Assembly (NCBI RefSeq): GCF_900182835.1
Contig: NZ_FXUB01000002.1
Location: 124,001-188,000, forward strand
Length of the DNA: 64,000 nucleotides
Direction: 5' to 3'
From: Desulfurobacterium pacificum
GTDB lineage: Bacteria; Aquificota; Aquificia; Desulfurobacteriales; Desulfurobacteriaceae
Shown piece after piece: positions 6,067 through 47,287 of this stretch. Position 1 is the stretch's first letter, and the number at the start of each line of letters is the position of its first letter. Below the pieces are notes generated by a model. It made no database searches. It saw only the letters and a list, made by a program, of their open reading frames with translations, and was not told where the DNA came from. The translations under genes were made by a program, and so were the position numbers.

Positions 6067-9119
<3,053 letters not shown>

Positions 9120-35160: not shown

Positions 35161-35694
35161 CTACGTTATAGAACTAAGCTCGTCAACAATTTCCTCAACA
35201 TCCTTTTTAGTTACCTCTTTTCTCGTAGCAAAATCCTCTATCCTTCCGTTAAGCCAGAAAAGATACTCTGCTTTCTTAAAATCCTTTGAGATTTTCCCCC
35301 TCATAACAGGTCTGAAATATCCGATAGGTCTGCTCCACAAAGTAACGTCGGTAGAACCGCACTTTTCACACTCAGTTTTTCTTCCTACCATCTTGTGTCC
35401 GCACTCGTTGCAGGTAGTTAAAAACGGCGTCTTCGTCAGGTATTGAATGGGGAAATTCCTGATGATGTTAAAAATCAACTTCTCCTGCTCTTCAGGTTTC
35501 ATCTCTTCAGCAGTAAAGATGTGCATTATAGAACCACCAGTCGCGTAGCTCTGGAAGTGTGAGTTTACGTCTATCTGCTTTAAAAGGTCCCCCTCCTGGA
35601 ACGGCGCCTGAAAACCAGATGTTAAGAATACTCTCCCCGTTGAAGGGTCGCCGTTAACGTACATTTTAGGTCTAACTTTTTTTACAACCTCCAT
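35161..35694 (-). CDS. nrdD: Anaerobic ribonucleotide reductase, C-terminal (glycyl radical) part, separate gene
   Basis: 177 aa. It matches only the last quarter of class III NrdD: LLKQIDVNSHFQSYATGGSIMHIF, then a four-Cys zinc site (Cys95, 98, 109, 112), then SRPIGYFRPV with the likely radical Gly125. It starts with its own ATG after TTTGGAGG. The catalytic barrel is encoded separately at 36032-37585, with two small membrane-protein genes between. The two lengths sum to 694 aa, close to a one-piece NrdD. The two chains probably assemble (inference). Confidence 0.85.
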   Translation of the reverse strand: MEVVKKVRPKMYVNGDPSTGRVFLTSGFQAPFQEGDLLKQIDVNSHFQSYATGGSIMHIFTAEEMKPEEQEKLIFNIIRNFPIQYLTKTPFLTTCNECGHKMVGRKTECEKCGSTDVTLWSRPIGYFRPVMRGKISKDFKKAEYLFWLNGRIEDFATRKEVTKKDVEEIVDELSSIT

Positions 35695-35708
35695 CTACAA
35701 CCTCCAAA

Positions 35709-35807
35709 CTATTTTGCTTCTTCCAGACTTCTAATAACGACAAAAAGAAAATAGGCAAAAAACAGAGCAATAATCACGCTAAAAATAATTCCTAAAAGCT
35801 CAAACAT
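35709..35807 (-). CDS. Very small single-pass membrane protein (32 aa)
   Basis: 32 codons starting MFELLGIIFSV with one long hydrophobic segment (about residues 4-25) and a charged tail RSLEEAK. AGGAG lies six bases before the ATG, which directly follows the stop of the preceding small gene. It ends 15 bases before the NrdD C-terminal gene. No known family is recognised. The clear ribosome site and fit in the operon argue for a real gene. Confidence 0.55.
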   Translation of the reverse strand: MFELLGIIFSVIIALFFAYFLFVVIRSLEEAK

Positions 35808-36029
35808 TTAAGACTCCTGCAATAAGTTCCTGATTTTTAAATATAACTTAGTCATAGCAGAAATCAGCATCAACTCAAGAAAGAAACCTATAAACAAGAG
35901 AACCATCACCAGCAAGCTCTTTTGTTTAAAAAGCAAACCTACAATTCCACTCCCAATCGCAAAAACGTAAGCTGACAGAATTTTCAGCATATCCCTATAC
36001 AAATCCACTTCCTTTTCTATCTTATCCAC
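35808..36029 (-). CDS. Small two-segment membrane protein inside the nrdD locus
   Basis: 73 aa: a charged N-terminal helix (MDKIEKEVDLYRDMLKI), two hydrophobic segments (about residues 17-35 and 39-59), and a basic tail. It probably starts at GTG two bases after the stop of the NrdD barrel gene. The function is not recognised. It might be a membrane partner of the split reductase or an unrelated insertion. Confidence 0.55.
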   Translation of the reverse strand: MDKIEKEVDLYRDMLKILSAYVFAIGSGIVGLLFKQKSLLVMVLLFIGFFLELMLISAMTKLYLKIRNLLQES

Positions 36030-36031
36030 CG

Positions 36032-37585
36032 TTACACTCTTATTACATCAAAAAGTTTCTCACCAAACTTATGAATAGACTCCTTAATAAATAAATTCAA
36101 GTATGGGTCCTTAGAAATTTCGTAACTTCTCTCACCATTTAAAACATCGGCAAGAGCGCTTGCAAAGGCAAGGTCTTTCTCAGCCATCTTGCAGGCAGCG
36201 TTTTCAGAAGGAGCATACTCTAAAGAATAAAGCACTCTATCCCTCTCCATAAACTCCTGTAGCTTCGTATACAGGTATTGAGCTATCTGGTGAGCGTATT
36301 CCTTCGCTTCATCGTTAAAGAGTCCCCCCTCAAAACCAGCATTAACCATTCCTTCATGAACACCCACTACAGAGAAGATGTTAAACAGCGACTTATCGTC
36401 CTTCTGATAGAAAGACAGGTACGGGAACAAATCATCCCAATACTTTCTGAGCCACTCTCTCTTTCTTTGCAAAGCTTTCGCTCCAACGTCCATAGTGTAA
36501 TCTATCATTCTCTTTAAGAAATCAAAGTCATCCTTTGCTAAGAATAACAACCTGTTCATATTAATAGCGTAAACACCGATACCGCCAACGCCACTACCAG
36601 AGTGGAACGGGTTTGAACCGGTTACCGCTTCAACCTGCGAAATGTTAAACAGCATCCTACAGCAGTTGGAATAAATCATACCTTCATCAAAAGGTTTAAT
36701 GTATGGATTTTTCTGCTTATAAATAGACGGCTTTTCAAAAGGCTCTCTCAGGTAGTTTTGAACGTAAAAACCACCAAAGTATTCGCTCTCTTTCAAAAGC
36801 AACTTCCAGGCAGGATTATCCTTATCAAAATCTTCCGTAATGTTAACCGTTATAAGCGGGAACGTAAACGGATTACCTTCAGCGTCCCCACGCCTCATTG
36901 CCTTAATAAAGGCAGTATTAATCCTGTCAAAGTAGTGAGAAGGTATTTGATTGTAGGTCATGTTAAGGAAATCGCCTGCATAAACAACCGGCTCATACTT
37001 CAATCTGCTGTTAGGCTTACCGAAATCAAGAGTTATGTTTGAAAACGGCGAGTTACCGCTTCTAAAAGGAAGGTTTATGTTGTAGAGAAATTCCTGCCAC
37101 AGGTTTTCAAGGTCATAGTCAGAATAGCTCGTTCTACCTTCCCTCTCAAGGTAGTAAAGGTATCCGGCAGCAACTGTAGAAAGGTCATTTAAGGACGTAG
37201 CACCGGAAACTTCCTGAGCAATCAAACAGATAAGGTTGGCACACTGCATAAAAAGGGTTTCAAGTCTTCTTGGCGGTGCCGCTTTCCTCTCGTTTTTAGC
37301 GTTACTCTGAAGCCCATAGAACGCAATATCTTTGGCGGATAAACCGATACAGTAAGCGCTCAGGCGGTAGGTTTGATGGTGGTATGCCCAACCCTCTTCG
37401 TGGTGAGTTCTTACAGGAAGCCCTTTATATATCTCATCAAAGAGGTAATCCTTCATCACTTCGCCAACAACAACGTGCTCTAAAACGGGAATTCCTCTAA
37501 CGAAGTTAGCGTTATTACGGGATATGTCGTCATTATCAATAAAGAGTTCAATCAGCTTGAAATACTTATTTTTCTTCATTCTCAC
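36032..37585 (-). CDS. nrdD: Anaerobic ribonucleoside-triphosphate reductase, catalytic barrel part
   Basis: 517 aa class III reductase lacking both the N-terminal ATP-cone and the C-terminal glycyl-radical part. Visible features are NANFVRG near residue 26, YHHQTYRLSAYCIGLS with Cys79 (likely catalytic), SNCCRML with Cys308 and Cys309, the GSGVGGIGVYAINMNRL strand, and EYAPSENAACKMAEKD near 456-471. The chain then ends where an intact NrdD would continue. It overlaps nrdG by four bases. Without the other gene it should be inactive. Confidence 0.88.
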   Translation of the reverse strand: MRMKKNKYFKLIELFIDNDDISRNNANFVRGIPVLEHVVVGEVMKDYLFDEIYKGLPVRTHHEEGWAYHHQTYRLSAYCIGLSAKDIAFYGLQSNAKNERKAAPPRRLETLFMQCANLICLIAQEVSGATSLNDLSTVAAGYLYYLEREGRTSYSDYDLENLWQEFLYNINLPFRSGNSPFSNITLDFGKPNSRLKYEPVVYAGDFLNMTYNQIPSHYFDRINTAFIKAMRRGDAEGNPFTFPLITVNITEDFDKDNPAWKLLLKESEYFGGFYVQNYLREPFEKPSIYKQKNPYIKPFDEGMIYSNCCRMLFNISQVEAVTGSNPFHSGSGVGGIGVYAINMNRLLFLAKDDFDFLKRMIDYTMDVGAKALQRKREWLRKYWDDLFPYLSFYQKDDKSLFNIFSVVGVHEGMVNAGFEGGLFNDEAKEYAHQIAQYLYTKLQEFMERDRVLYSLEYAPSENAACKMAEKDLAFASALADVLNGERSYEISKDPYLNLFIKESIHKFGEKLFDVIRV

Positions 37586-38238
37586 TCCTCCACAGGGTAA
37601 AAAGGGTTAATCTGGTGTGGGATAGATTTTACATTTTCAGAAATGAACCTGAGTTCCGATTCGGTCAGAAGAGGATACCTGACAGTCCTGAAAACGTTAT
37701 ATGGAAGTTTGCTTTCCTCAACTATTTGCTTTGTTTTTTTCACCCTCTGAACGTATTCATACAACTTTTCATCAGGAACATCCTCTGTTGAATAAAGGAT
37801 AGTTTTGAAGCGCTTGAGCTGGGTAGGGGCATATTCTTCTAATAAAGGAAATTTAATATCTACTGCAAAACCATCTGTTAATTTCTCTTCAATTATTTCT
37901 TTAACAACTTCCGGGTTCGTCCCGTTCGTATCTATCCTGACTTTAAACCCTTTTTCCTTTAAAAACCTCAAACCTTCTTTTAAATCTTTTTCTAATGTAG
38001 GCTCCCCGCCAGAAATTATTATCAGCTCAACACCTAAAAGCTTAAGCATTTCCAATTTTTCAGACAATTCCTCATAAGTATATTTCTCTCCGTTTCCCCT
38101 ATAACTACTCCTGTTATGGCAGTGATAACAGTTAAGGTTGCAAACTCTTATATCGGTATAGAAAAGCGCTGACTGAACTCCCGGCTGGTCTTTAAACGTA
38201 ATGGGAACTTCAACCTTGAGAAAAGGGGAAAACTTCAT
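37582..38238 (-). CDS. nrdG: Anaerobic ribonucleotide reductase activating protein (radical SAM)
   Basis: About 218 aa. The 4Fe-4S motif CNLNCYHC (Cys-x3-Cys-x2-Cys) and SGGEPTLEKDL SAM site are intact. It generates the glycyl radical on NrdD. I chose the ATG at 38238, six bases after GAGG; a TTG at 38250 is in frame. A TAAAAT -10-like element is at 38274-38279 on this strand. Longer than many NrdG (about 155-180 aa), it resembles the NrdG2/ThrD-like group often paired with this NrdD type. Confidence 0.88.
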   Translation of the reverse strand: MKFSPFLKVEVPITFKDQPGVQSALFYTDIRVCNLNCYHCHNRSSYRGNGEKYTYEELSEKLEMLKLLGVELIIISGGEPTLEKDLKEGLRFLKEKGFKVRIDTNGTNPEVVKEIIEEKLTDGFAVDIKFPLLEEYAPTQLKRFKTILYSTEDVPDEKLYEYVQRVKKTKQIVEESKLPYNVFRTVRYPLLTESELRFISENVKSIPHQINPFYPVEE

Positions 38239-38291
38239 CGTTAACCTCAAGATTCAAATCTGGTATCAGAATAATTTTATGACTTTAAAGG

Positions 38292-44989: not shown

Positions 44990-47287
44990 ATGACGCAGAT
45001 AAAAGTCGTTAAAAGAAAAGGCGTAAAAGAACCCTTAAACATAGAAAAAATAAGGAAGGTAATAAACTGGGCGGCAGAAGGGCTGGACATAAACACGCTA
45101 AAACTTGAATCAAAACTGAAACTCCACTTTTTTGACGGCATTACTACAAGGCAGATTCACGAAGCGGTAATAAATACAGCCCTCAACCTGACAACGCCTC
45201 AAGAACCGGACTGGCGAATATTAGCAGGCAGACTCTTCATTTTTAACCTTTACAAAGAAATCTCCATCAGGAGAGGAACGAACAAGTTAGCTTACGTCGG
45301 CGGCGGTGAAGAATACTTAAAAGTAGTAAAAAACCTGACAGAGTTAGGACTATACACTCCAGAAATCCTTGAAAGCTATACAGAAGAAGAAATAAAAGAA
45401 GCAGGCGACTACCTGAAGCTGAAATACGATTTTCTCTACGATTACGCAGGCGCAAACCTTTTAGCAAAGCGATACCTGTGCGTTTACGAAGACTTCCCCA
45501 TAGAACTGCCCCAGGAAATGTATATGAGCATCTCCCTCATGCTCGCAAAAGATGAACCGAAAGAAAAACGTATGAGAATAGTAAAAAAGTTCTACGACAT
45601 GATAGCCGGCAAAAAACTTTCCCTCGCAACGCCCATACTCATAAACCTGCGAAGACCAAACGGGAACCTCTCTTCCTGCTTTATAACCGCAATGGACGAC
45701 AACCTTGACTCCATAATGTACACAGCAAACCAGGTAGCACAGATATCAAAAAGGGCAGGCGGCGTTGGCGTTAACCTCTCAAGGATAAGGGCACAGGGTT
45801 CATGGATTAAAAAGGTTTTCGGCGCCAGCGGCGGCGTTGTTCCATGGGTGAAAATCCTCAACGACGTCGCCGTAGCAGTAAACCAGGAAGGGAAAAGAGC
45901 AGGCGCTGTCACCGTAGCCCTGGACGTCTGGCATTTAGATATCTTTGACTTCCTGGAACTGAAAACGGAGAACGGAGACTTAAGAAGGAAGGCTTTTGAC
46001 ATCTTCCCCCAAGTCGTCATTCCAGACCTTTTTATGGAAAGAGTAAAAGAGAATGGAAACTGGCTGTTAGTTGACCCCTACGAAGTTGAAAGGAAATTTG
46101 GCTACAAGCTTTATGAATTGTGGGGAAAAGAGTTTGAAAAAGCCTACACTCATATAGAAAGAGAACAGGAAACGTTAAAACTAAAGAAGGTTGTAAAGGC
46201 AAAAGAACTTCTAAAAGAGATACTGAAAACCCAGGTTGCAACGGGGCTTCCATACATCTTTTTCAAAGACACAGCCAACAGACTCAATCCGTTAAAACAC
46301 GATGGATACATAGGAAACGGCAACCTTTGTATGGAAAGTTTCTCAAACTTTAAACCTTCAAAAGGCTTCTCTTCAAAACTTGAGAACGGAAAAATCGTTT
46401 CCGAAATCAAAGAGCCCGGGCTTGTCCACACCTGCAACCTGCTCTCAATTAACCTTGCAAACATTGAAGATGACCTTGAGCTTGAAGATGCCGTCAGGAC
46501 GGCAGTAAGAATCCTGGACAACACCATAGAACTGACAAGTCCCCCGATACTTGAAAGCAAACTTCACAACGATAGATACAGAACGATAGGAATAGGAACG
46601 TTAGGACTTGCAGACTACCTTGCAAAGAGAGAAATCCCCTACGGCAGACAATCAATACCGATAATAGAAGAACTCTACGAAAAAATCGCCTTTTACGGAA
46701 TAGATGAAAGCGCTAATTTAGCAAAAGAAAGAGGTAAATTTCCCGCATTTGAAGGTTCTGACTGGAGTAGAGGAATAGTCTTTGGCAAAGACGAAGAATA
46801 CCTGTTAACGAAAACGAAACTAAAAGAACGCTGGAAAGAAGTTCTGAACAAGCTGAAAAACTACGGAATAAGGAACGGACAGCTATTCGCCATAGCTCCG
46901 AACACAAGTTCTGGACTCCTTCAGGGAGCAACGCCAGGCGTCCTACCGCCGTTTTCAAAGTTTTACATAGACAAAAATCAGAAACAAGCTGTTCCTATCT
47001 GTCCACCGTTTATAAAAGAACGGTTCTGGTTTTACAGAGAAAGCAAATATATGGACCAGAGAGAAGTCGTTGAAATAATAGCGGCAATCCAGAAATGGAT
47101 AGATAGCGGTATCTCTATGGAACTGCTTTTCAACCTCAACTTAGGAATTAAAGCTAAAGACATTTACGAAACGGTTCTACTCGCATGGGAAAGAGGAATA
47201 AAAACCATCTACTACGTGAGAACAATACAGAAAGATAGCGAATCTGAAATAAATAAGAAGGAAGAGTGTATAGCCTGCGCCAATTAA
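44990..47287 (+). CDS. nrdA: Ribonucleoside-diphosphate reductase alpha subunit (class I)
   Basis: 765 aa. An ATP-cone domain occupies about residues 1-95. The barrel holds SSCFI (first redox Cys), GNLCMES with the active-site Asn/Cys/Glu, and CNLLSINL with the second redox Cys. The C terminus ends CIACAN, a short thioredoxin-exchange pair. No nrdB is in the window. Together with the nrdD/nrdG locus it gives both an aerobic and an anaerobic route to deoxynucleotides. Confidence 0.93.
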   Translation: MTQIKVVKRKGVKEPLNIEKIRKVINWAAEGLDINTLKLESKLKLHFFDGITTRQIHEAVINTALNLTTPQEPDWRILAGRLFIFNLYKEISIRRGTNKLAYVGGGEEYLKVVKNLTELGLYTPEILESYTEEEIKEAGDYLKLKYDFLYDYAGANLLAKRYLCVYEDFPIELPQEMYMSISLMLAKDEPKEKRMRIVKKFYDMIAGKKLSLATPILINLRRPNGNLSSCFITAMDDNLDSIMYTANQVAQISKRAGGVGVNLSRIRAQGSWIKKVFGASGGVVPWVKILNDVAVAVNQEGKRAGAVTVALDVWHLDIFDFLELKTENGDLRRKAFDIFPQVVIPDLFMERVKENGNWLLVDPYEVERKFGYKLYELWGKEFEKAYTHIEREQETLKLKKVVKAKELLKEILKTQVATGLPYIFFKDTANRLNPLKHDGYIGNGNLCMESFSNFKPSKGFSSKLENGKIVSEIKEPGLVHTCNLLSINLANIEDDLELEDAVRTAVRILDNTIELTSPPILESKLHNDRYRTIGIGTLGLADYLAKREIPYGRQSIPIIEELYEKIAFYGIDESANLAKERGKFPAFEGSDWSRGIVFGKDEEYLLTKTKLKERWKEVLNKLKNYGIRNGQLFAIAPNTSSGLLQGATPGVLPPFSKFYIDKNQKQAVPICPPFIKERFWFYRESKYMDQREVVEIIAAIQKWIDSGISMELLFNLNLGIKAKDIYETVLLAWERGIKTIYYVRTIQKDSESEINKKEECIACAN

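What the first reader, a model, noticed from the sequence alone, without database searches (positions are those of the whole stretch)
35161..37585. Class III ribonucleotide reductase split into two genes, with two tiny membrane-protein genes in the split
The barrel (517 aa, ends after the EYAPSENAACKMAEKD region) and the zinc/glycyl-radical part (177 aa, with Cys4 and SRPIGYFRP) are separate genes totalling 694 aa, about the length of a single NrdD. Between them, in the same operon, are 73-aa two-segment and 32-aa one-segment membrane proteins, each with its own start; ribosome sites are visible for the 32-aa and C-terminal genes. The frames are open and motifs intact, so this looks like functional splitting, not decay. 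The inserts could anchor the reductase to the membrane or be a leftover of a mobile insertion.
Basis: partly seen in the sequence, partly recalled or inferred. Interest (0 to 1): 0.75.

Follow-up and report, generated by a model that had tools for sequence, protein, structure and literature searches.

The report
Anaerobic ribonucleotide reductase in two chains
A whole family of heat-loving bacteria makes its oxygen-free DNA-building-block enzyme from two separate proteins, with the radical-carrying glycine on its own small subunit; the two tiny membrane genes lying between them in this one species are an unrelated, recently inserted gene pair.

Summary
The split is real and functional. NrdD is encoded as a barrel chain (window 36032-37585, 515-517 aa) and a zinc/glycyl-radical chain (35161-35694, 177 aa), downstream of nrdG. 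The genome has no other NrdD. All 22 genomes of the family (Desulfurobacteriaceae) have the barrel chain unfused; 21 show both chains. In one genus (4 genomes, 3 of them 99% complete) the split enzyme is the only ribonucleotide reductase found. Both chains evolve under strong purifying selection, and a read-through N+C model folds as one NrdD whose disordered join is the split. Single-chain orthologs (about 41% identical) exist in Aquificaceae. The two tiny membrane genes are unrelated to the split: among the relatives they are only in this species, the sister species keeps just a remnant, and they belong to a dispersed pair (103 copies of the first gene in 42 of 136 Aquificota genomes; partner beside 31 of 34 checked). 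Unexpectedly, other Aquificota split NrdD at a different point, leaving the radical glycine on a free 51-61-residue peptide. Best reading: an obligate two-chain class III reductase with a separable radical subunit; 'spare part' exchange after oxygen damage is plausible but untested. New variant of a known kind.

The parts
36032..37585 (-). nrdD-N: barrel chain of the class III ribonucleotide reductase (517 aa from GTG; probably 515 aa from ATG at 37579). Carries Cys79 and the NCCR motif (Cys308/Cys309, 517-aa numbering)
35161..35694 (-). nrdD-C: 177-aa glycyl-radical chain (terminal strand, Cys4 zinc site, SRPIGYFRP radical loop, long tail), with its own GGAGGT ribosome site
35808..36029 (-). 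73-aa two-TM protein, first gene of the inserted cassette; GTG start just after the stop of nrdD-N
35709..35807 (-). 32-aa one-TM protein, second gene of the inserted cassette
37582..38250 (-). nrdG: radical-SAM activase that should install the glycyl radical (NrdG2-like, 115.6 bits against a cut-off of 131.15)

Best explanation
This is a genuine two-chain class III ribonucleotide reductase. The N chain supplies the substrate-binding barrel, the reductive cysteine (Cys79) and the NCCR motif. The C chain supplies the final core strand, the zinc site and the radical glycine. The chains should assemble without a covalent link, in the arrangement that one NrdD chain normally has; NrdG then activates the glycine on the C chain, which dips into the barrel of the N chain. 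Shown: gene structure, conservation, selection, absence of any other NrdD, sole-RNR status in one genus, and a predicted single fold whose only long disordered stretch is the split point. Inferred: non-covalent assembly, radical transfer across the chain interface, activation by NrdG. The two tiny membrane genes are a separate cassette, inserted between the chains by the time of the ancestor of this genus and already mostly deleted in the sister species. They are not a reductase subunit.
For: The family-wide split is never fused. No class I/II RNR in four g7 genomes, three of them 99% complete. dN/dS 0.014 (N) and 0.013 (C) against the sister species. Invariant C78/C307/C308 (alignment numbering) and invariant zinc Cys and SRPIGYFRP. 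Unsplit orthologs align contiguously over both chains, and the split clade is sister to them, 100/100. AF2 of the read-through has pTM 0.89, with pLDDT below 50 in stretches only at residues 16-20 and at the join 511-521; all 36 PDB hits with E <= 0.001 are class III RNRs, aligned over both chains. Cassette: absent or reduced to a remnant in relatives; 103 matches in 42 of 136 genomes; partner in 31 of 34; on Aquifex plasmid ece1.
Against: No biochemistry. The AF2 model was made on a covalent read-through of a relative, so it shows that the pieces fit, not that they bind as separate chains. This species also has a class I NrdA (44990-47287) and a further class I/II-type RNR frame on contig 1, so here NrdD need not be essential. 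The deletion in the sister species rests on one MAG contig.
Confidence: 0.88

Rival explanations
1. Spare-part advantage: the split is kept because oxygen cleaves the chain at the radical glycine, and only the small C chain (or a 51-61-aa peptide) then has to be remade and swapped, as YfiD/GrcA does for pyruvate formate-lyase.
For: The radical glycine is separated in two tree-distinct NrdD lineages and at two cut positions in this phylum. Spare-part repair is shown for PFL, and its authors suggest other GREs may have it (PMC8683613). In one f2 genome the peptide gene sits with a NrdG-like gene, away from nrdD.
Against: No exchange data. No intact NrdD coexists with the C chain, so it is an obligate subunit rather than a repair part. 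Neutral gene fission would leave the same pattern.
Confidence: 0.3
2. Neutral fission: a harmless break at a length-variable, disordered linker was fixed once in the family ancestor and has no function of its own.
For: The split lies in a linker of variable length and low predicted order; the pieces add up to about the length of unsplit orthologs with nothing lost.
Against: It recurred in a separate NrdD lineage, always separating the radical glycine.
Confidence: 0.5
3. The two small membrane proteins anchor the reductase to the membrane.
For: Same operon and strand; a cassette of the same family also lies between class I nrdA and nrdB in two genomes of another genus.
Against: Absent from the split in the relatives and cut down to a remnant in the sister species. 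Copies also sit in the comF, serA/recG, thrB/rsmH, cysS and nuo regions, fused to part of a sigma-factor gene, and on plasmid ece1.
Confidence: 0.04
4. Decaying nrdD pseudogene or assembly error.
For: Only a stop codon separates the halves in some genomes; the species has other RNRs.
Against: Family-wide, purifying selection, own ribosome sites, sole RNR in four genomes.
Confidence: 0.02

Closest known systems
Single-chain class III RNR of Aquificaceae/Hydrogenothermaceae (665-687 aa, no ATP cone)
   Same: Orthologous: 39-42% identical to N and 40-45% to C, contiguous, same C-terminal tail
   Different: One polypeptide
Thermotoga maritima NrdD (NrdDh subclass, PDB 4coi/4coj)
   Same: Fold; Cys-Cys-Arg motif; no cysteine visible in the finger-loop stretch; zinc and glycyl-radical domain
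   Different: Single chain; SCCR rather than NCCR; about 17% identity
Split phage RNR genes (nrdA of Aeh1; nrdD of phiAS4 and Lactococcus phage 949)
   Same: RNR encoded in pieces; the Aeh1 pieces are functional (PMC2988022, PMC3653736)
   Different: Phage genes broken by homing endonucleases, introns or unknown events; not a fixed family-wide chromosomal split
Class II NrdJa/NrdJb of Pseudomonas aeruginosa
   Same: Chromosomal RNR with a C-terminal domain on its own gene (PMC5704485)
   Different: Class II; the detached domain is a redox domain, not the radical carrier
YfiD/GrcA
   Same: Stand-alone glycyl-radical protein completing a GRE core (PMC8683613)
   Different: Repairs cleaved PFL while intact PFL exists; here the C chain is the only source of the radical glycine

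Membership tests
Class III ribonucleotide reductase (NrdD) | NRDD catalytic domain over the gathering cut-off | tested here: met
   N chain 201 bits, C chain 83 bits, cut-off 26.2
Class III ribonucleotide reductase (NrdD) | Glycyl-radical loop near the C-terminus | tested here: met
   SRPIGYFRP invariant in 20 of 20 C chains
Class III ribonucleotide reductase (NrdD) | Reductive active-site cysteine (Cys79 T4 / Cys125 T. maritima) | tested here: met
   Invariant YC at aa 79 of the 517-aa chain, in the column of AYC/VYC/PYC in unsplit NrdDs; residue roles from PMC4493059
Class III ribonucleotide reductase (NrdD) | Structural zinc cysteines | tested here: met
   C95, C98, C109, C112 invariant
Class III ribonucleotide reductase (NrdD) | Radical-SAM activase NrdG in the same operon | tested here: met
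   37582-38250, best hit NrdG2 115.6 bits (cut-off 131.15)
Class III ribonucleotide reductase (NrdD) | Ribonucleotide reductase activity with a glycyl radical | not testable with these tools
   needs assay and EPR
Canonical single-chain NrdD architecture | Barrel and glycyl-radical loop on one polypeptide | tested here: not met
   Two genes; never fused in 22 genomes
NrdDh subclass | SCCR (or MCCR) motif with hydrophobic finger-loop residue | tested here: inconclusive
   NCCR, with Phe near the aligned position; definition from PMC4493059
GrcA/YfiD autonomous glycyl-radical cofactor | Exists beside an intact enzyme that it repairs | tested here: not met
   No other NRDD match in the genome
Known small membrane protein families (73-aa and 32-aa genes) | Match over a curated cut-off | tested here: not met
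   None in Pfam, NCBIfam or PHROGs

The most novel reading that the evidence does not exclude
In Aquificota the radical glycine of class III RNR has been moved onto a free, exchangeable subunit more than once: a 177-aa chain in Desulfurobacteriaceae, and 51-61-aa peptides in a sister family and in one f3 genus, in one case encoded with a nrdG-like gene and away from nrdD. This would be a built-in, obligate version of spare-part repair, in which O2-cleaved subunits are swapped and the large barrel is reused.
Probability: 0.3. Interest if true: 0.82.

Novelty: new variant of a known kind. Interest (0 to 1): 0.62.

Why it matters
Glycyl-radical enzymes are destroyed by oxygen at the radical glycine, and whether repair parts exist beyond pyruvate formate-lyase is stated as open (PMC8683613). 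A class III RNR whose radical glycine is naturally on a separate small chain, and is the only RNR of some genomes, makes that directly testable. It also gives a two-component system for isolating radical installation from catalysis. I found no description of a cellular split NrdD in the open papers held here. Second, it shows a widespread, unnamed two-gene membrane cassette in Aquificota that inserts between essential genes.

Tried and rejected
(1) Cassette caused the split: rejected; the split is in all 22 family genomes, the intact cassette at the split in one. (2) Membrane anchor: rejected as above. (3) Second intact nrdD: none. (4) Programmed frameshifting to fuse the chains: unlikely; the chains are in frame with a stop between them (g7), shifted and overlapping, or 340 nt apart, while a ribosome site for C is kept. 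(5) Split intein joining the chains: no intein blocks seen at the N-chain end or C-chain start; the intein-like inserts present sit at Cys79 and Cys308 inside the N chain. (6) Phage or plasmid origin of the cassette: no phage hit, but two places on Aquifex plasmid ece1. (9) A lone 87-aa zinc/glycyl-radical ORF in an Aquificaceae genome (L102) looks like decay: no barrel, broken radical-SAM ORF nearby.

Full report
OBSERVATION. Pfam NRDD covers N (profile 2-427) and C (437-555) with almost nothing missing between them. The N chain probably starts at the ATG at 37579, which follows GGAGGAG, rather than the GTG at 37585. The whole genome (1.59 Mb, 99.92% complete) has no other NRDD match.

THE SPLIT IS OLD AND FUNCTIONAL. 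The window lies in Desulfurobacteriaceae (named hits: Desulfurobacteriaceae, Desulfurobacterium and Thermovibrio MAGs). In 22 family genomes from 7 genera the N chain is never fused to the C chain; 21 show both, and in the last (G014) the contig ends inside N. Junctions differ: overlaps of 11 and 14 nt in shifted frames (L040, L035), a same-frame stop with 3 nt between the genes (L038), or 340 nt here. In most of them a GGAGG-type ribosome site before C is visible. A sequencing error cannot give this pattern. N chains are 80-93% identical across a sample of the family, with Cys79 and Asn-Cys-Cys-Arg invariant; the four zinc cysteines and SRPIGYFRP are invariant in 20 C chains. Against the sister species dN/dS is 0.014 for N and 0.013 for C (dS about 1.2, near saturation). 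In genus g7 (four genomes, three of them 99% complete) there is no class I or II RNR catalytic domain at all, so the split NrdD is the only RNR found there. That is the strongest functional argument.

ORIGIN. Single-chain orthologs of 665-687 aa without an ATP cone occur in Aquificaceae-type genomes (f4) and in one f3 genome. They align contiguously over N (39-42%) and C (40-45%), including the unusual tail after the glycine. A maximum-likelihood tree makes the split proteins one clade (100/100), sister to these (100/100). The break is in a linker whose length varies between lineages. AlphaFold2 on the read-through of a g7 locus (stop read as Gln) gave mean pLDDT 86 and pTM 0.89, with stretches under 50 only at 16-20 and at 511-521, which is the join. 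Foldseek: all 36 PDB hits with E <= 0.001 are class III RNRs, aligned across both pieces. This shows that the pieces belong to one fold; it does not by itself show non-covalent assembly.

THE TWO TINY GENES. They are unrelated to the split. The sister species has 64 nt between N and C and keeps only the last ~45 nt of the 32-aa gene; the other relatives have no room for such genes there. So the pair was probably present in the genus ancestor, was mostly deleted in the sister, and is dispensable there. The 73-aa protein belongs to a family with 103 matches in 42 of 136 Aquificota genomes and six in this genome. In 31 of 34 copies examined, a 29-45-aa one-TM gene follows at once, often overlapping by ATGA. 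Copies sit in unrelated places: near comF, serA/recG, thrB/rsmH, cysS, nuo genes, integrases, fused to part of a sigma-factor gene, and between class I nrdA and nrdB in two genomes of one genus (gene names read from the translated flanks). Two places are on Aquifex aeolicus plasmid ece1. No Pfam, NCBIfam or PHROG family matches. The best reading is a dispersed, probably mobile two-gene cassette of unknown function. The two RNR-operon locations are noted, but two among many do not show an association.

A WIDER FINDING. Looking for the origin of the split turned up others. In the sister family f2, NrdD stops after the zinc region without any radical glycine (640-aa ORF in G023; G022 likewise, with inteins). 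In G022 (95% complete, no class I/II RNR) the glycine is in a 51-aa gene on another contig, with a GGGAGG site, directly before a NrdG-like radical-SAM gene. In genus g17 of f3 (two genomes) the operon is nrdD (703 aa, no radical glycine), a 54-61-aa radical-glycine gene with a GGAGG site, then nrdG. These cuts are at a different place and in a different NrdD lineage, so separating the radical glycine happened at least twice, probably three times, in this phylum; the placement of the f2 sequence is unsure (long branch).

MECHANISM AND RIVALS. Most likely the N chain binds substrate and effector, the C chain docks as the missing strand, zinc and radical domain, and NrdG makes the radical on the docked or free C chain. 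Whether splitting is neutral (0.5) or kept because an O2-cleaved radical chain can be replaced (0.3) is open. The latter would be an obligate analogue of YfiD/GrcA repair, shown so far only for pyruvate formate-lyase (PMC8683613).

KNOWN OR NEW. RNRs in pieces are known in phages (PMC2988022, PMC3653736) and in class II NrdJa/b (PMC5704485); free glycyl-radical proteins are known as PFL spare parts. Searches of the open literature held here found no cellular split class III RNR; most subscription papers were not searchable. I rate it a new variant of a known kind.

LIMITS. No biochemistry; no two-chain model; distribution outside Aquificota not tested; identification of individual G genomes with named species rests on memory and is not relied on.

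Noticed in passing
L101 1558-1713 (G022 contig 52) and L052 (G022 contig 55): Sister-family NrdD lacks the radical glycine; it is on a free 51-aa gene (MKEKKVLCEVYARVVGYHRP...) before a NrdG-like gene, on another contig. G022 has no class I/II RNR.
   Followed up: partly
L110 4478-4642 (-) and L109 just after 6288 (+), before nrdG at 6538: In genus g17 (f3) the operon reads nrdD without a radical glycine, a 54-61-aa glycyl-radical peptide gene, then nrdG.
   Followed up: partly
L033, L036, L041 (one insert); L048, L049 (two inserts): Large intein-like inserts in nrdD-N at the active-site cysteines (Cys308 of NCCR; in L048/L049 also Cys79); G022 NrdD also carries two.
   Followed up: partly
L067 and L074 (G020, G015): A cassette of the same 2-TM + 1-TM family lies between class I nrdA and nrdB.
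   Followed up: no
L145 416-1096: The 2-TM gene is fused in frame to what looks like the C-terminal part of a sigma factor (226-aa frame), as if inserted into that gene.
   Followed up: no
L164 5460-5702 (Aquifex plasmid ece1): Copies of the 2-TM family on a plasmid, next to a site-specific integrase.
   Followed up: no
L102 1498-1761 (G029): Lone 87-aa ORF with zinc and glycyl-radical motifs but no NrdD barrel in the genome; probably decay beside a broken radical-SAM ORF.
   Followed up: partly
window 44990-47287 (+): Class I RNR alpha subunit (765 aa) about 7 kb from nrdG; no nrdB seen beside it.
   Followed up: no
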